DNA from: a virus
Reading direction: 5' to 3' (one strand)
DNA: 64,000 bases
IMG/VR virus record: IMGVR_UViG_3300032323_001387
Span: 62,001-126,000 of that record
Every line of letters begins with the position of its first letter. Position 1 is the stretch's first letter. A program made the position numbers and the translations under genes. The notes under the pieces were generated by a model. The model did not search any database and was not told the origin of the DNA. It saw nothing but the letters and a program-made list of their open reading frames with translations. Below are positions 24,449 through 58,610 of this stretch, one piece after another.

Positions 24449-25306
24449 ATGGCAACATCACAAGCAAACCCACTAGCTAAACAGTACTTGACTAACAAGG
24501 AATTACTCAAAGAAATTCATCTTAGTAAGAACAACTACAGTAGCTATACAAAACCCGAATATGGTAATTATGATTTAATTTTAGCCGATGTGTCTAAAAT
24601 TAACATAAGAACTATAGCAGAAGCTAAACGCAACCATGCACTCAAACTAAGCCAACTTGCTTTAGCAGAAGCTCAAAAAATTAACCCAAAAGCTAAATTA
24701 GCAGAAGTTGAAATTGACTATAAAAAAGTCGCAAAAACTGACGTTGTATTTAGAATCATGACACATGATCATGTGCCATTGGAACCTGGACGCAAGAAGA
24801 CTCCAAAAAATCGTGGAGATCATCACAGCAAATGCAACTTTCCTCCCTATCAACATTTTAAATTTGAAGAAGTTGACGGAGAAGAAAAACTCGTCTGCGT
24901 TGGCAAAAGTCACTGGAAAGGTGACATGGACACTGGAGAGTTTTGCTTAGATGGCGAGATAACAAAAAAGCTTGCCAAGAGTTATATGCTACTCTGCGAA
25001 CGCTACAGTATGCGATTTAACTGGCGTGGTTATACATACGTAGATGAAATGCGTAGCCAAGCATTACTACAACTAAGTCAAATCGGTTTACAGTTTGACG
25101 AATCAAAATCACAAAATCCTTTTGCTTATTATACAGCGGCCATTGACAACAGTTTTACTCGAATCCTTAATATTGAAAAGAAAAACCAAATGATTCGAGA
25201 TGACTTGCTAATTGAATATGGTAGCAATCCTAGTTTTTCTAGGCAATTTGAACACGAAGCTAATATGCGCGACGAACGTGATCGTCTGGCAGGATTGAAA
25301 GATTAA
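24449..25306 (+). CDS. gp55: Late transcription sigma factor gp55
   Basis: T4 gp55 replaces the host sigma factor and recognises only the TATAAATA late box. This 285-residue protein is longer than T4 gp55 (185). The sigma-2-like helix region lies in the C-terminal half: KLAKSYMLLCERYSMRFNWRG, then MRSQALLQLSQIGLQFD, then NPFAYYTAAIDNSFTRILNIEK and NQMIRDDLL. The N-terminal part includes a helical stretch with GNYDLILADVSKINIRT and a His/Cys-containing insert (residues 105-170) that I do not recognise. It precedes gp47 and gp46. Many matching late boxes are present in this window. No ribosome site is seen at usual spacing; its promoter implies a leaderless mRNA. Confidence 0.88.
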   Translation: MATSQANPLAKQYLTNKELLKEIHLSKNNYSSYTKPEYGNYDLILADVSKINIRTIAEAKRNHALKLSQLALAEAQKINPKAKLAEVEIDYKKVAKTDVVFRIMTHDHVPLEPGRKKTPKNRGDHHSKCNFPPYQHFKFEEVDGEEKLVCVGKSHWKGDMDTGEFCLDGEITKKLAKSYMLLCERYSMRFNWRGYTYVDEMRSQALLQLSQIGLQFDESKSQNPFAYYTAAIDNSFTRILNIEKKNQMIRDDLLIEYGSNPSFSRQFEHEANMRDERDRLAGLKD

Positions 25307-38624: not shown

Positions 38625-38675
38625 ATCGAAATTTCGATTTTACAACTTACAAAAGGGCTCTTCGGAGCCCTTTTT
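38623..38675 (+). terminator. Terminator after the major capsid gene, preceded by an 18-bp palindrome
   Basis: AAAAGGGCTC and GAGCCCTTTT form a perfect 10-bp stem on the UUCG-type loop TTCG (38651-38674), with a T-run. The same hairpin recurs at 45921. Just before it, 38623-38640 is a perfect 18-base palindrome (AAATCGAAA and its complement) starting inside the gp23 stop codon. Confidence 0.93.
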
Positions 38676-38679
38676 GTTC

Positions 38680-38687
38680 TATAAATA
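38680..38687 (+). promoter_or_regulatory. Late promoter box TATAAATA, consensus
   Basis: Perfect TATAAATA, 5 bases before the ATG at 38693 and 5 bases after the capsid terminator. No ribosome site fits between; the transcript should be leaderless. Confidence 0.8.
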
Positions 38688-45900: not shown

Positions 45901-45920
45901 TTAGAAATAATTAGTACATA

Positions 45921-45946
45921 AAAAGGGCTCTTCGGAGCCCTTTTTT
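45921..45946 (+). terminator. Terminator after the giant fibre gene
   Basis: AAAAGGGCTC-TTCG-GAGCCCTTTT plus further Ts, identical in the hairpin to the terminator after the capsid gene. Confidence 0.93.
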
Positions 45947-45963
45947 AACGATCTTTGAATTTG

Positions 45964-45977
45964 TATAAATATAAATA
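45964..45977 (+). promoter_or_regulatory. Overlapping tandem late promoter boxes
   Basis: Two perfect TATAAATA boxes share two bases (45964-45971 and 45970-45977), upstream of the gene at 45995. No Shine-Dalgarno sequence is seen in the short leader. Confidence 0.75.
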
Positions 45978-49420: not shown

Positions 49421-49457
49421 TTTCCGGAAATTAAATGGGACTACGGTCCCATTTAAT
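49419..49457 (+). terminator. Hairpin terminator after the S74 fibre
   Basis: ATTAAATGGGAC (49430-49441) pairs perfectly with GTCCCATTTAAT (49446-49457) on the loop TACG. A 14-base palindrome (AATTTCC and its complement) starts at 49419. The U-tract is short, so termination may be partial. Confidence 0.7.
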
Positions 49458-49459
49458 AG

Positions 49460-49467
49460 GATAAATA
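49460..49467 (+). promoter_or_regulatory. Late promoter box GATAAATA
   Basis: GATAAATA immediately follows the fibre terminator and precedes the small gene at 49486, with a TAGGAG ribosome site between them. Confidence 0.6.
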
Positions 49468-49485
49468 AACGAATAGGAGATTATA

Positions 49486-49680
49486 ATGGCAGTTTTACCA
49501 GCAACAGGTTCTGAAATTGTTATGGGTCGTGTTAGACAATCATATAATAACGTAGCCCCAGGTGCCGGCCAAAATATTTCATTAGGTGGTACACTTGGTG
49601 GATTTTTAGGACAATCAGCAGGAACTCAAATTAGCTTGAGTTCTAGATTCGGCGGCAGATTAACACCGTTCAACTACTAA
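49486..49680 (+). CDS. Small fibre-associated protein
   Basis: A 64-residue Gly/Ser-rich protein. LPATGSEIVMGRVRQSY is the short LPxTGxxIxMxxV module often found at the start of phage fibre or collar proteins. Two repeats of ISLGG/ISLSS follow. It has its own late promoter and AGGAG site, so it is probably abundant in virions. Function unknown. Confidence 0.65.
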   Translation: MAVLPATGSEIVMGRVRQSYNNVAPGAGQNISLGGTLGGFLGQSAGTQISLSSRFGGRLTPFNY

Positions 49681-49696: not shown

Positions 49697-49728
49697 TATA
49701 AATACCTCAGTAACCCTGAGGTATTTTT
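49697..49728 (+). promoter_or_regulatory. Composite late promoter, terminator and ribosome site
   Basis: The perfect late box TATAAATA (49697-49704) overlaps the 5' arm of a perfect 11-bp hairpin: AAATACCTCAG (49700-49710), loop TAACC, CTGAGGTATTT (49716-49726), ending in Ts up to the ATG. The 3' arm carries GAGG (49718-49721), a ribosome site 7 bases before the ATG at 49729. Transcripts from the late box would begin in the loop and leave GAGG free. Confidence 0.7.
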
Positions 49729-50313
49729 ATGGCTAAACAAAAAACGGTACAACATGAAAAAGATGAAGTATTAGAGCAATTATTTGCACTATGTCCTTTC
49801 AACTCGACGAGTGAGTTTGAAAGACAAAACTTTATTGAATTAACAGGCGTAGCTCGCGCTCGTTATATAGTTTCTGTAATTAACAGAATTAGAAAAATCG
49901 ACAGCGATTTAGAACTAGAGCAACGTACATTTGAACAAAATTGTTTGTTAGAAGAACGTGCGTACTTGGTTAAATTTATTAAAAATGAACCACAGAATGA
50001 ACTTCAATCTATACTTACAAATTGGCAAATTACTGAAGAAGAGTATTGGATTGACTACCTAGGAAAAATTGCCGCTATAGAATTATTGACAATAGGCAAG
50101 CCTAGTTTAGAAACCATGACAAAAATGGTTAAACTTCCAGAAAGTGCTTATATTAAAGCTACACAAATCTGTGTTAAGTTAGCAAACGCAATCAAAGAAG
50201 CTACTGTAATGGCAGAACAAGAAATTGGTATTGATACAAATAACACTGCGGATGTTACAGATCCATCGGCGCCTTCTCAACCTAAGAAATTAAAACTTAA
50301 AAAAATTAAATGA
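49729..50313 (+). CDS. Hypothetical protein of the fibre-glycosyltransferase operon
   Basis: A 194-residue, mostly alpha-helical protein (LEQLFALCPFNSTSEFERQNFIELTGVARARYI, cited in part as FERQNFIELTGVARARYI) with a Lys-rich tail (KKLKLKKIK). Text such as LGKIAAIELLTIGKPS is common in small T4-like phage proteins, but I cannot name it. It starts on the composite late element and overlaps the glycosyltransferase gene by 4 bases. Confidence 0.55.
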   Translation: MAKQKTVQHEKDEVLEQLFALCPFNSTSEFERQNFIELTGVARARYIVSVINRIRKIDSDLELEQRTFEQNCLLEERAYLVKFIKNEPQNELQSILTNWQITEEEYWIDYLGKIAAIELLTIGKPSLETMTKMVKLPESAYIKATQICVKLANAIKEATVMAEQEIGIDTNNTADVTDPSAPSQPKKLKLKKIK

Positions 50314-50954
50314 ACTATAATGAAATTCGATTAGCAATTTGTATCCCTACCAGGGATACAATGCACAGTGGTTGCACGTATTCGCTGTATAATCTTTCGC
50401 AAAAGCTAACCGAACACGATATAGATCATAAATTATTTTTAAGTCCAGGAACACTAATAGCAAACCAACGGCATGAATTAGTATTATCTGCAATAGAATG
50501 GGGTGCTACTCATGTCATGTTTATTGACAGTGACATAGAGTTTCAACCCTATCATGTATTTGATTTATTGGAATTCAATGAATTAATTGTAGGAGCTGCA
50601 TATAGTAAACGAGTTGAACCGTTTATAACAACAGCTTGGCATAAAATATACGATTGGAATTCACACGTAGATGTAACTACGCAAACCGATAGCCATATAC
50701 AAGTAGAATGTATGGCGCTAGGTTTTTGTTTAATTAATACATCTGTATTTGAACAACTAGAACTGCCATGGTTTATATTAGGCTACAATAAAGAAGTGCA
50801 TCAATATACAGGCGAGGATATTGAATTTTTTAGGCAATGCAATGACGTCGGAATTCCGATTTGGCTTGATATAGCTACTACCTGCGAACTAGGACATTTA
50901 GGAACAAAATCATTTAAAGTTGCTGGCGGTATCGAAGTAGACCCTGCCATTTAG
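50310..50954 (+). CDS. Glycosyltransferase-A-fold protein
   Basis: A 214-residue protein with a GT2-like start RLAICIPTRDTMHSGCTYSLYN and the metal/nucleotide-binding DSD in THVMFIDSDIEF, then VECMALGFCLINTSVFEQLELPWF and TGEDIEFF, which fit the acceptor-site part. Enzymes of this family move a sugar from a nucleotide sugar. Its place after the fibre genes suggests it could decorate virion proteins; sugar modification of DNA or host surface is an alternative. The last 41 bases overlap the convergent gene. Confidence 0.8.
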   Translation: MNYNEIRLAICIPTRDTMHSGCTYSLYNLSQKLTEHDIDHKLFLSPGTLIANQRHELVLSAIEWGATHVMFIDSDIEFQPYHVFDLLEFNELIVGAAYSKRVEPFITTAWHKIYDWNSHVDVTTQTDSHIQVECMALGFCLINTSVFEQLELPWFILGYNKEVHQYTGEDIEFFRQCNDVGIPIWLDIATTCELGHLGTKSFKVAGGIEVDPAI

Positions 50955-54922: not shown

Positions 54923-54951
54923 TTGACACAAATTGGTTTTGGTAATATAAT
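54923..54951 (+). promoter_or_regulatory. Consensus sigma70 promoter for the metalloprotease gene
   Basis: TTGACA (54923-54928) and TATAAT (54946-54951), both perfect, 17-base spacer, with the shared TTGACACAA 9-mer. Predicted start near 54958; an AAAAAGG ribosome site precedes ATG 54980. Confidence 0.93.
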
Positions 54952-54979: not shown

Positions 54980-55417
54980 ATGGAATATAAAGTCGAAGCA
55001 ACTAGCCAAAAAATACAAAAGTTTTTGGAATCACTGATGCCTTCGTTTATTGAACAACTTGGGTTGACTAACAGTAAACGAGCAGTTCTAGTAAAAGTCA
55101 CAAAAGATTTGGAAAAAGAGTTCCAAGGCTCTACTATGAACATTGAGTTCGCTGATTGTATGCTAGTGTTGATCAGGGCGCCCAAAAGAATCACCCCAAT
55201 GGCTTTAATAGAAATGGCTACTACTTTAGCACACGAAATGGTACACGTAAGGCAGCTGGCCAAAGGTATTATGCGTTTCGACCGCGGCGATGTAAGATAT
55301 TGGAAAGGCAAAAGGTATACCAAAAAAACCAAGTATTTGGACATGCCATGGGAAATAGATGCCTTTTCAAAGCAAGAACTTTTGGTGCGCCGCGCATTTG
55401 AAATTGACACAAAATAG
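54980..55417 (+). CDS. Zinc metalloprotease-like protein (HExxH, SprT/zincin type)
   Basis: A 145-residue protein with HEMVH at residues 85-89 (His85, Glu86, His89) in a helix TTLAHEMVHVRQLAKG, and a later DMPWEIDAF whose Glu125 is a likely third zinc ligand. This is the shape of short SprT-like or phage zincin peptidases. Its role in infection is unknown; it may cut a host or phage protein. It is driven by a perfect sigma70 promoter, so it acts early. The promoter of the next gene lies in its last codons. Confidence 0.78.
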   Translation: MEYKVEATSQKIQKFLESLMPSFIEQLGLTNSKRAVLVKVTKDLEKEFQGSTMNIEFADCMLVLIRAPKRITPMALIEMATTLAHEMVHVRQLAKGIMRFDRGDVRYWKGKRYTKKTKYLDMPWEIDAFSKQELLVRRAFEIDTK

Positions 55418-55432
55418 AAGTTAGCATATAAT
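55404..55432 (+). promoter_or_regulatory. Consensus sigma70 promoter for the 398-residue protein gene
   Basis: TTGACA (55404-55409) and TATAAT (55427-55432), both perfect, 17-base spacer, again TTGACACAA. It overlaps the end of the metalloprotease gene. AGGAG ribosome site before ATG 55455. Confidence 0.92.
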
Positions 55433-55454: not shown

Positions 55455-56651
55455 ATGGCTACAAAAAGACCCGTTAAACAAGCAAGCTCGGATAAATTGG
55501 CTTGGCGTTTTGAACCGCCTGCTAAAACCGTTGCCTATCGAGAAGTTGATTCTAAGTATGTGGGCGAAGAACCAACTTACCCCAGCGTAGAAGAACAACA
55601 GGCTTGGACTGCCAGCGAGTATAAAACACAGATCCTGCGTTCACTGAATTGGTATGCACATACACAGGATAAAAAGAAAAGTGCAGAATGGCTAGTTCAA
55701 TTCCTTGCACGTAATCCACGCCGCCAAAAATTAGCAGAAGCAGTCAAGCGTGGAGACATTTGGCCAGGCCCCACAGTTGGTTTTGCGCTAAGAGCAGGCC
55801 GAGTTGGACTCGCATTGCGATTCGGTACACTTCGTACTCTTGTTAAACAGCTTAAACAAGCAGACGTTGGCATTGACACTAGTAATCAAGTCGCCGAAGT
55901 CGTTGTAGATGACAAGCCAAAGTTCAATATCCAAGAACGTATGGCTGAAAAGACAGCAGAATTCCTGGGAGAACTCGAAGGTCGTTTTGATGACTTTATG
56001 GCTGAGTTCAAAGGCGAACCCAAGCTAGTCGAATTGATGACTTCGATGAACGTTCCTGCCGTACAGGTTAAAACAGTACAAGAGTTTATTAACAAAAAGA
56101 TTGCAGAGTTTGAAGAAGTTAACTCTAGCAAAGATCCGCAGGTATTGGAAGCATATAAGCATCTAGGCAAGCGCCAAGTCAATACCATTATCAAATGGTG
56201 GACACAGGCTTTGGCAGACGCTAACAGCTACAACGTAGTTAAAAAAGCCAGCAAGGCTCCGCGTAAAAAGAAAGCAGTTACACCTGAAAAAGTTGTAGCC
56301 AAGTTGAAGTACGCAAAAGAGTTTAAAGAACTTAGTCTCAAAAGTGCGGACCCAACTACAATTCTCACGGCGCAAGAACTTTGGGTGTATAACACAAAGA
56401 CACGTAAGCTGGGTATCTACATTGCAGATCAATATGCAGGCGCATTGACAGTTAAGAATAGTGCTATTGTAGGTTTTGATGCTAATGCAAGTGTACAAAA
56501 GACATTGCGTAAGCCCAAAGATCAACTTAAAGAGTTTAGTGCTAACGGCAAGCCGGCCGCTAAGAAATGGTTTAAAGGTATTAAAGCTACAGAAATCAAA
56601 CTTAATGGCCGTATAAGTACTGATATCGTCTTGTTAAAGGTTTACAAATGA
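55455..56651 (+). CDS. Conserved hypothetical protein, basic
   Basis: A 398-residue Lys-rich protein. The N-terminal half is helical (EYKTQILRSLNWYAHTQDKKK, cited as SLNWYAHTQDKKKS, then LGELEGRFDDFMAEF); a basic linker (KKASKAPRKKKAV) near residue 260 leads to a beta-rich C-terminal domain (ELWVYNTKTRKLGIYIAD, then LNGRISTDIVLLKVYK). I remember similar proteins in T4-like aquatic phages as conserved hypotheticals. A nucleic-acid-binding role is only suggested by charge. It shares its ATGA end with the lipoprotein gene. Confidence 0.65.
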   Translation: MATKRPVKQASSDKLAWRFEPPAKTVAYREVDSKYVGEEPTYPSVEEQQAWTASEYKTQILRSLNWYAHTQDKKKSAEWLVQFLARNPRRQKLAEAVKRGDIWPGPTVGFALRAGRVGLALRFGTLRTLVKQLKQADVGIDTSNQVAEVVVDDKPKFNIQERMAEKTAEFLGELEGRFDDFMAEFKGEPKLVELMTSMNVPAVQVKTVQEFINKKIAEFEEVNSSKDPQVLEAYKHLGKRQVNTIIKWWTQALADANSYNVVKKASKAPRKKKAVTPEKVVAKLKYAKEFKELSLKSADPTTILTAQELWVYNTKTRKLGIYIADQYAGALTVKNSAIVGFDANASVQKTLRKPKDQLKEFSANGKPAAKKWFKGIKATEIKLNGRISTDIVLLKVYK

Positions 56652-57814
56652 AAACACAATTAATTGCCACAGTTCTTATTTCATTATTAACCGGATGTTC
56701 GCTAACTGCTTGTGGAGGCAGCGGCAATAATAAGGCAACAGCGCCTAATGACCCTCCGCCTATTATAAATGCAGATACAATTAGTTGTCAAGTACAAAAT
56801 CCTTTAACACTATTAAATGCAGAACCCGTATATAATTTCTCGGGCCTGAATAGTAACTGGTATAATTCTAAAAGTGTTCCGGGCGCAGAATCAAGTCAAA
56901 ATTTTGTAATTGCTTTTTCTAACTTTTCGGCAGTTGCAAAAGAGAAAAATGATGCGGCTTTAAAATCTACATTGGTATCGAATCTTCATCGCTGGGCAGT
57001 AGCAGACGCATTTAAAGGTAGCAGGCTTTGCTGGAATCCCACAACAGGCTGGGATAGTACTTGTACCCAATGGGTTGATCCAAATGGCAATGATTTGAGT
57101 GCCATTCAAGACAATAACTTTATCATGGAGATGGTGGAATCTATTAGACCTTCTTACAGTCTTATATCGGACTGGGCCAAAGAAAATGAGCCAACTAAAC
57201 ATGCCAAAATTATGAGTTGGTTAGATTTTTGGGATGAAAATACACCAAATCCCGACAATGTATTTTTTGGACTAGGAATGGGAAGATACCATTGGGAAAT
57301 ACGGCGTATTACTGATAAATCCGGCGTTGCGGCAACTACTCCATTGGTTCGTAGATTAATGCAGGATATTTTACTGCTAGTCAACGAAGACGGTTCCATT
57401 AGAGATAGAACAACCCGTGGAAATAGAGCTATGTGGTATCATTATTCCTCGCTCAACGAAATCATGACATCTATGTATTTGGCTAAACTAGCTGGTGTTG
57501 CAATAGATCCTGTGCTGGAAAATAGACTGCATAAAGCAGTTGAATTATTTCTCAATACATTAGATAATCCTGCACATATTGTTAAATGGGCAAATACAGG
57601 ACATAACAACGGCGGAGATGGCACTGCACAAAACTTTAATTTTGCCGATTGGTATAACCAACCCTATGCAGGATCGTGGATTTATTTGTATGTAAATTGG
57701 TATCCTTCTAACAATAATACAGCAAGGCTGTCACAAAAAGTTCCTTTAAATTCTGCAAAATCAGCAAGTCAGGACAGGCAATTTGGTATACCTTTAGGTT
57801 GTTTGCTTTTTTAA
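56648..57814 (+). CDS. Secreted lipoprotein with alginate-lyase-like features
   Basis: A 388-residue protein with a bacterial lipoprotein signal: MKTQLIATVLISLLTGC, lipobox LTGC with Cys17 (a second possible Cys at 22), then a Gly/Asn/Pro spacer. So it should be made in the host and anchored at the outer membrane. The mature part is helical and Trp/Asn-rich; NLHRWAVADAF, then FFGLGMGRYHWEIR, and TTRGNRAMWYHYSSLNEIMTSMYLAKLAG resemble the alpha/alpha-toroid alginate lyase family, in which an Asn/His/Tyr cluster is catalytic. I cannot prove lyase activity. It overlaps the preceding gene by 4 bases and ends at a terminator. A host-derived moron is likely. Confidence 0.7.
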   Translation: MKTQLIATVLISLLTGCSLTACGGSGNNKATAPNDPPPIINADTISCQVQNPLTLLNAEPVYNFSGLNSNWYNSKSVPGAESSQNFVIAFSNFSAVAKEKNDAALKSTLVSNLHRWAVADAFKGSRLCWNPTTGWDSTCTQWVDPNGNDLSAIQDNNFIMEMVESIRPSYSLISDWAKENEPTKHAKIMSWLDFWDENTPNPDNVFFGLGMGRYHWEIRRITDKSGVAATTPLVRRLMQDILLLVNEDGSIRDRTTRGNRAMWYHYSSLNEIMTSMYLAKLAGVAIDPVLENRLHKAVELFLNTLDNPAHIVKWANTGHNNGGDGTAQNFNFADWYNQPYAGSWIYLYVNWYPSNNNTARLSQKVPLNSAKSASQDRQFGIPLGCLLF

Positions 57815-57825
57815 ATAACAAAACC

Positions 57826-57863
57826 AAAATCTCCCGCTAAATATACATAGCGGGAGATTTTTT
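57826..57863 (+). promoter_or_regulatory. Composite terminator, late promoter and ribosome site before gp13
   Basis: A perfect 14-bp stem (AAAATCTCCCGCTA at 57826-57839 with 57848-57861) and T-run terminates the lipoprotein gene. The late box GCTAAATA (57836-57843) lies across the 5' arm and loop. The 3' arm holds GGGAG (57852-57856), the ribosome site 7 bases before the gp13 ATG. Late transcripts start past the 5' arm and free the ribosome site. Confidence 0.75.
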
Positions 57864-58610
57864 ATGAGTATTAAAGACGAAATTACCAAGGACATAGAAC
57901 TTAGACTTGGCGGAGGAATGGTTGATGTAGAATTAGATTCTGCACATTATGACTTGGCTATTAATCAGTCCTTACGCAAATATAGACAGCGTAGTAGTCG
58001 AGCAGTAGCGGAAAAATTTATCCCTATAGATATTAAAGCAGAACAGCAAGAATATCAATTGCCATTGAATGTACAATTGGTTAGGGAAGTAATGCTTCGT
58101 CAAACTGGTACAATGGGTATTAGCCAGACAGGCGTTGACTTTGAACCGTTCAACGCTATGTACCTTAACAATATGTTATTACAGCAATCTTCTAGCTTTG
58201 CTGGATTGATGAATTATGAGTTATATTCAGGACGTCGTGAATTAATGGCTCGTATGTTTGGTGGTTATGTAACATTTACATTTAGCCAAAACGATAAAAA
58301 GATTTTGTTACATCGTAAGTTTAGAGCCGAAGATACAGTATTTGCGTGGTGCTGGGTTGAACGCGATGACGAAGATTTGCTAATAGATCCATATGCCGGT
58401 CCATGGTTAAAGGACTATGCCTTTGCCAAAGCCAAATTTATGTTAGGCGAAGCTCGTGCCAAGTTTGCTACTATCGCTGGCCCGCAAGGCGGAACAAGCT
58501 TAAACGGTGATGCACTGAAAAGCGAAGCGGCAGCAGACCTGGAAAAACTCGAAGAAGATTTAAAGAATTATGTAGACGGCGGCGGCTACGGAGGATTCAT
58601 CATTGGATGA
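57864..58610 (+). CDS. gp13: Neck protein gp13
   Basis: Head-completion neck protein, partner of gp14. The start (IKDEITKDIELRLGGGMVDVELDSAHYDLAINQSLRKY, cited as LRLGGGMVDVELDSAHYD) is the typical gp13 pattern in which a helix is followed by VxVELxxxxxDxAIxxSLxxY. Central IPIDIKAEQQEYQLPLNV and LYSGRRELMARMFGG match the aquatic T4-like form, and AWCWVERDDEDLLIDPYAGPWLKDYA follows. 248 residues against 309 in T4. Its stop is just past the TTG start of the next gene. Confidence 0.85.
   Translation: MSIKDEITKDIELRLGGGMVDVELDSAHYDLAINQSLRKYRQRSSRAVAEKFIPIDIKAEQQEYQLPLNVQLVREVMLRQTGTMGISQTGVDFEPFNAMYLNNMLLQQSSSFAGLMNYELYSGRRELMARMFGGYVTFTFSQNDKKILLHRKFRAEDTVFAWCWVERDDEDLLIDPYAGPWLKDYAFAKAKFMLGEARAKFATIAGPQGGTSLNGDALKSEAAADLEKLEEDLKNYVDGGGYGGFIIG

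What the first reader, a model, noticed from the sequence alone, without database searches (positions are those of the whole stretch)
49697..49728. Terminator, late promoter and Shine-Dalgarno merged into one 30-base switch
The late box TATAAATA overlaps the 5' arm of a perfect hairpin, and the 3' arm carries the GAGG ribosome site of the next gene. RNA read from upstream would terminate or fold and hide GAGG; RNA starting at the late box lacks the 5' arm and leaves it open. Translation of the next gene would thus depend on which promoter was used.
Basis: partly seen in the sequence, partly recalled or inferred. Interest (0 to 1): 0.72.

Follow-up and report, generated by a model that had tools for sequence, protein, structure and literature searches.

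The report
Phage stop–restart hairpin before late gene
Just before a late gene of an uncultured T4-like phage, one 30-base hairpin appears to stop RNA coming from upstream and hide the next gene's ribosome site in any RNA that slips through, while a late promoter inside it starts a new RNA with that site open; this is the classic T4 lysozyme-gene trick with a transcription stop added, and it turns out to be widespread.

Summary
Late box TATAAATA (49697-49704) overlaps the 5' arm of a perfect 11-bp hairpin (49700-49726). The 3' arm holds GAGG and runs into TTTTT-ATG (49729).

All 30 homologues found keep box, hairpin, Shine-Dalgarno (SD) site and a T5-T7 run, while the upper stem varies with compensatory changes. 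A second copy of the layout, with a different sequence, precedes the gp13-like gene at 57864. The phage encodes a gp55-type late sigma factor.

Box, inhibitory arm and SD are the arrangement known from T4 genes e, 49 and I-TevI. The difference is the U-tract: predicted terminator scores are +5.7 and +28 here but negative for every T4 case. The U-tract form recurs before many unrelated genes in IMG/VR, and before gp13-type genes in three phage groups.

Best reading: a one-way stop-and-restart element. Upstream RNA terminates or, on read-through, has a masked SD; RNA from the internal late promoter lacks the 5' arm, so it neither terminates nor masks. Here it separates two late units; at 57864 it separates an early from a late unit. 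No transcript data exist, and termination at 49697 looks only moderate.

The parts
49697..49704 (+). late promoter box TATAAATA
   Evidence: spacing to start codons across the window; T4 position -13 to -6 from PMC1524935
49700..49710 (+). 5' arm AAATACCTCAG of the hairpin
49710..49710 (+). predicted late transcription start (+1), inferred from T4 spacing
   Evidence: not mapped
49711..49715 (+). loop TAACC
49716..49726 (+). 3' arm CTGAGGTATTT
49718..49721 (+). Shine-Dalgarno GAGG, 7 nt before ATG
49724..49728 (+). T5 run (terminator U-tract); T5-T7 in all 30 homologues
49729..50313 (+). controlled gene, 194 aa, function unknown (weak match to phrog_1409)
50310..50954 (+). overlapping downstream gene (phrog_1574, function unknown), probably co-transcribed
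49486..49680 (+). upstream 64-aa gene; its RNA would end at the hairpin
49460..49467 (+). late box GATAAATA of the upstream gene, so the upstream unit is late
57826..57861 (+). second element: 14-bp hairpin AAAATCTCCCGCTA/TAGCGGGAGATTTT
57836..57843 (+). late box GCTAAATA (Aeh1-type CTAAATA) of the second element
57852..57856 (+). Shine-Dalgarno GGGAG in the 3' arm of the second element
57858..57863 (+). T6 run of the second element; terminator score +28
57864..58610 (+). gp13-like head-tail adaptor Ad2 (phrog_211, E 2e-31)
55404..55432 (+). consensus early promoter TTGACA-17-TATAAT of the unit upstream of 57864 (another at 54923-54951)
24449..25306 (+). late sigma factor, gp55-like (phrog_12791, E 1.4e-76)

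Best explanation
It is a one-way stop-and-restart element of the T4 gene e type with an added U-tract. Shown by sequence: a late box, a hairpin whose 3' arm contains the SD, and a U-tract are fused within 30 bases. The fusion is conserved with compensatory changes in homologues, and the same layout is built from a different sequence at 57826-57863. Inferred: gp55-RNA polymerase starts at 49710, so its RNA lacks the 5' arm, cannot form the terminator and offers GAGG to the ribosome. RNA arriving from the upstream late gene forms the hairpin. Part of it terminates in the U-tract and the remainder carries a masked SD. Expression of the gene therefore depends on its own promoter, and the upstream unit is insulated.
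For: Anatomy. Real late-promoter system: boxes 23-48 nt upstream of starts, gp55-like sigma factor, box position and CTAAATA variant. Conservation: 30/30 homologues keep box, helix, SD and T5-T7; 99% of helix cells paired, 7 double-change cells, 0/500 shuffles; 65 of 71 distinct elements form the first three inner pairs against a mean of 15 with arms swapped. Second element: 15 of 16 closest homologues keep it, with varying upstream neighbours and helix covariation. Folding: SD unpaired 0.0001 in long RNA, 0.55 in late RNA. Termination: scores +5.7 and +28 against -4 to -82 for the T4 elements and +30 for two ordinary terminators of the window. T5+ precedes only 2 of 58 starts in the window, exactly these two. 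T5+ goes with a complete hairpin in IMG/VR, 21/34 against 1/39. Established precedent for SD masking: PMC3014915, PMC2988022.
Against: No transcript, protein or structure-probing data. Termination at 49697 is only moderately predicted (+5.7; homologues -6 to +13). The outer pairs cannot covary because box and SD fix them, so covariation rests on the three innermost pairs. One gp13-like homologue, L061, lacks the element, so it is dispensable somewhere.
Confidence: 0.72

Rival explanations
1. SD masking only. It is a plain T4 e-type inhibitory hairpin; the T run is an A/U-rich spacer that pairs with the A-rich box and terminates little in vivo.
For: T4 e, 49 and I-TevI work without a U-tract. 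The 49697 score is borderline. Elements without a U-tract occur in the related genomes G001 and G002.
Against: T5-T7 is kept in 30/30 homologues although only the first Ts pair with the box; T5+ is otherwise absent before starts in the window; the second element scores like ordinary terminators; T5+ is associated with complete hairpins.
Confidence: 0.18
2. Terminator with compact packing. The hairpin is just the intrinsic terminator of the upstream gene; overlap with the box and SD saves space and SD masking has no regulatory effect.
For: Other late genes of the window have a terminator-like hairpin followed by a late box (45920-45977, 38655-38687, 49430-49467).
Against: Those neighbours show that the parts can be separate. 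Fusion with the start point inside the hairpin and the SD in the 3' arm is kept across 30 homologues and rebuilt with other sequences for gp13-like genes; the T4 relatives of the layout are experimentally inhibitory (PMC3014915).
Confidence: 0.08
3. Coincidence of an A/T-rich terminator with a box-like string.
For: TATAAATA occurs about as often as chance predicts in the window.
Against: Conservation, covariation and recurrence.
Confidence: 0.02

Closest known systems
T4 gene e (lysozyme) late promoter / RBS-sequestering hairpin (McPheeters et al. 1986, as reviewed in PMC3014915)
   Same: Late box in the 5' arm, start inside the hairpin, SD in the 3' arm, ATG right after it; even the sequence TAAATACCT...AGGAGGTATT-ATG.
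   Different: T4 e has only TT before ATG and a terminator score of -36, against T5 and +5.7 here. In T4 the upstream RNA is early; here the upstream unit is late.
T4 gene 49, I-TevI, I-TevII and segB leaders (PMC2988022)
   Same: Same layout; 49 and I-TevII were found in T4 by the same scan, I-TevI and segB by inspection.
   Different: T runs of at most 3, terminator scores below zero.
Ordinary terminator followed by a separate late promoter in this phage (38655-38687; 45920-45977)
   Same: Stops one unit and starts the next.
   Different: The parts lie side by side; the SD is not in the hairpin.

Membership tests
T4 e-type late-promoter/SD-sequestering hairpin | T4-type late box overlapping the 5' part of the hairpin or lying in its loop | tested here: met
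T4 e-type late-promoter/SD-sequestering hairpin | SD and/or AUG paired in RNA from upstream, open in late RNA (prediction) | tested here: met
   covariation
T4 e-type late-promoter/SD-sequestering hairpin | late 5' end mapped inside the hairpin | not testable with these tools
   needs RNA 5'-end mapping
T4 e-type late-promoter/SD-sequestering hairpin | late gene preceded by an early or middle transcription unit | tested here: not met
   49697: no consensus early promoter on + between 26306 and 54923. Met for the second element at 57864. So 49697 is filed as a variant.
intrinsic (rho-independent) terminator | stable hairpin followed at once by a U-rich tract, positive predicted score | tested here: met
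   +5.7 at 49697 (modest), +28 at 57826; not listed by the simple scan
intrinsic (rho-independent) terminator | RNA 3' ends in the U-tract | not testable with these tools
   needs Term-seq or in vitro transcription
T4-type late transcription system | phage-encoded gp55-like late sigma factor | tested here: met
T4-type late transcription system | sliding clamp gp45 and co-activator gp33 | tested here: inconclusive
   PF02916 search gave nothing in the genome or in the controls; gp33 was not searched

The most novel reading that the evidence does not exclude
T4-like phages have repeatedly built a fused terminator-promoter-ribosome-site element in front of unrelated late genes. It acts as a one-way insulator that blocks both transcription and translation from upstream while being invisible to its own promoter's RNA.
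Probability: 0.45. Interest if true: 0.6.

Novelty: new variant of a known kind. Interest (0 to 1): 0.45.

Why it matters
It shows that a control device known from a few T4 genes is widespread in uncultured T4-like phages, and that many copies carry a likely terminator built from the same bases. One short sequence would then stop one gene unit, start the next, and prevent leaky expression at two levels. That is testable in cultured phages and in reporter plasmids, and it gives a simple signature for marking transcription-unit boundaries in phage genomes that cannot be cultured.

Tried and rejected
DNA similarity of the locus to annotated phages: no match; protein similarity gave only a weak cyanophage hit of unknown function. 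The box as chance: its count alone is not enriched, so positional and comparative evidence was used. The simple terminator scan missed the site, hence the second score. The exact TAAATACCT...AGGTATT string is absent from CBB, P-SSM2, Syn9, S-PM2, HTVC008M, KVP40, RB49, Aeh1 and S-ShM2, and present in T4, RB69 and Phosso. A structure-based scan found no element in Syn9, HTVC008M and P-SSM2 but two U-tract forms in cultured phages, CBB 111951 and Phosso 129946. My control boxes of equal composition overlap the true element and so overestimate the background. The original papers McPheeters 1986 and Barth 1988 are not in the library; their content is taken from reviews.

Full report
What is there. 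The window is positions 62001-126000 of a 172,208-base virus record. Its closest annotated relatives by major capsid protein are jumbo T4-like phages such as Phosso, CBB and GAP32, at about 67% identity. Between a 64-aa gene (49486-49680) and a 194-aa gene (49729-50313) lie 48 bases. They hold TATAAATA (49697-49704), a perfect 11-bp hairpin (49700-49710 with 49716-49726, loop TAACC), GAGG in the 3' arm (49718-49721) and TTTTT before ATG. The 101-nt RNA folds at -21.7 kcal/mol, z = -4.5. Dinucleotide shuffles of the 48 bases reach an 11-bp stem in 0.2% of cases.

Is the box a promoter? TATAAATA as such is not enriched (7 found, 7.4 expected), but 11 of the 13 ATAAATA sites in the window lie 23-48 nt before a long ORF on the same strand. 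The phage encodes a gp55-type late sigma factor at 24449-25306 (phrog_12791, E 1.4e-76). In T4 the box spans -13 to -6, and Aeh1 uses CTAAATA (PMC1524935; PMC2988020). By that rule +1 is 49710, the last base of the 5' arm. Late RNA would begin GUAACCCUGAGGUAUUUUUAUG.

Two RNA forms. With 110 nt of upstream sequence the SD is unpaired with probability 0.0001; in RNA starting at 49710 it is 0.55. At the second element the values are 0.0000 and 0.77.

Conservation. Protein similarity alone retrieved 30 loci encoding relatives of the 194-aa protein, 46-100% identical. Every one has the element directly before the gene. The T run is 5 to 7 in all: counted in 26, and read as T7 for the four loci (L037-L040) that the script's short window missed. 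On 19 distinct rows 99% of helix cells pair. The box- and SD-constrained outer pairs are invariant, and the three inner pairs show 7 double-change cells (0 of 500 shuffles reach this).

A second element in the same genome. 57826-57863 reads AAAATCTCCCGCTAAATATACATAGCGGGAGATTTTTT-ATG. It has a 14-bp hairpin, a GCTAAATA box reaching into the loop, GGGAG in the 3' arm and T6. The gene is gp13-like (head-tail adaptor Ad2, phrog_211). Fifteen of its 16 closest homologues keep the element, with double changes in three pairs, although the upstream neighbour differs among them. The element therefore travels with the downstream gene. The one exception, L061, has no hairpin.

What lies upstream differs. 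Consensus early promoters (TTGACA-17-TATAAT, often TTGACACAAATTGG...) occur at 54923 and 55404 and drive the genes that run into 57864. Near-consensus versions lie at the same place in relatives G001 (142281, 142765) and G002 (57852). So the second element sits at an early/late boundary, as T4 gene e does. At 49697 no such promoter exists on the + strand between 26306 and 54923, and the upstream gene has its own late box GATAAATA at 49460. The element there separates two late units. 'Early' here rests on the sigma-70 consensus, not on measured timing.

Comparison with T4. The complete T4 genome was scanned. Gene e reads TATAAATACCTTCTATAAATACTTAGGAGGTATT-ATG. Genes 49, I-TevI, I-TevII and segB have the same layout. 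Reviews state that these hairpins block translation from early RNA, and that late RNA lacks the 5' arm and is well translated (PMC3014915; PMC2988022). T4 elements have T runs of at most 3 and terminator scores from -4 to -82. The two window elements score +5.7 and +28; two ordinary terminators of the window score about +30. No T4 element combines TAAATA with T5. RB69 behaves like T4.

How widespread. The downstream proteins fall into 37 clusters, many with a single member; the largest are our gene (33), a 78-aa protein (18), a gp13-type adaptor (12) and a fibre-like protein (7). Some matches must be chance, but 65 of 71 distinct elements form the first three inner pairs, against 15 on average with arms swapped and 4 with shuffled interiors. 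In a second scan that did not ask for a T run, T5+ was present in 21 of 34 elements with a complete hairpin and in 1 of 39 without (Fisher p = 1.4e-8). Rows are related, so this p-value is too small, and a few rows of that scan were not listed. The motif is largely what box plus SD complement dictate (TAAATA followed by CCTC pairs with GAGGTATTTA), so repeated independent origin is plausible. The gp13-type gene carries a U-tract element in three phage groups with different sequences: this phage and its relatives, the cyanophage-like G007, and cultured phage CBB (111951, phrog_211).

Interpretation. Best supported is a stop-and-restart element. RNA from upstream forms the hairpin and partly terminates, and any read-through carries a masked SD; RNA from the internal promoter cannot form the hairpin. 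The masking step is by analogy with tested T4 cases. The terminating step is inferred from the U-tract, its conservation and the score; it is strong for 57826 and moderate for 49697. At 49697 an SD-only role cannot be excluded.

Limits. There are no expression data. The T4 start-point rule was applied to another phage. The tested number of cultured genomes is small. The open library lacks most older T4 papers, so a previous report of a U-tract version may have been missed.

Noticed in passing
T4 46855; L123, L149, L194, L195; L461, L386, L392, L144: Holliday-junction resolvase genes recur behind this kind of element: T4 gene 49 (endonuclease VII), RusA-like (phrog_244) and RuvC-like (phrog_159). 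Delayed resolvase expression may be a shared need.
   Followed up: partly
window 30358-30388: Two late boxes on opposite strands (GATAAATA on + at 30358, TATAAATA on - ending at 30388) lie within about 30 bases of each other between divergent genes.
   Followed up: no
window 54923, 55404, 14115; G001 26780-31600: The lineage has an extended early promoter TTGACACAAATTGG...TATAAT with strict conservation just after the -35 box, often repeated before small genes.
   Followed up: partly
L061 2901-3001: A gp13-like homologue (75% identical) has no hairpin in front; a natural comparison case.
   Followed up: no
G002 83878 and 89525: Two large genes (1559 and 1862 aa) share an identical 14-bp box-in-loop hairpin without a U-tract.
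   Followed up: no
window 56648-57814: An ORF with a weak Pfam match to alginate lyase lies in the putative early unit directly upstream of the second element; other genes take its place in relatives.
   Followed up: no
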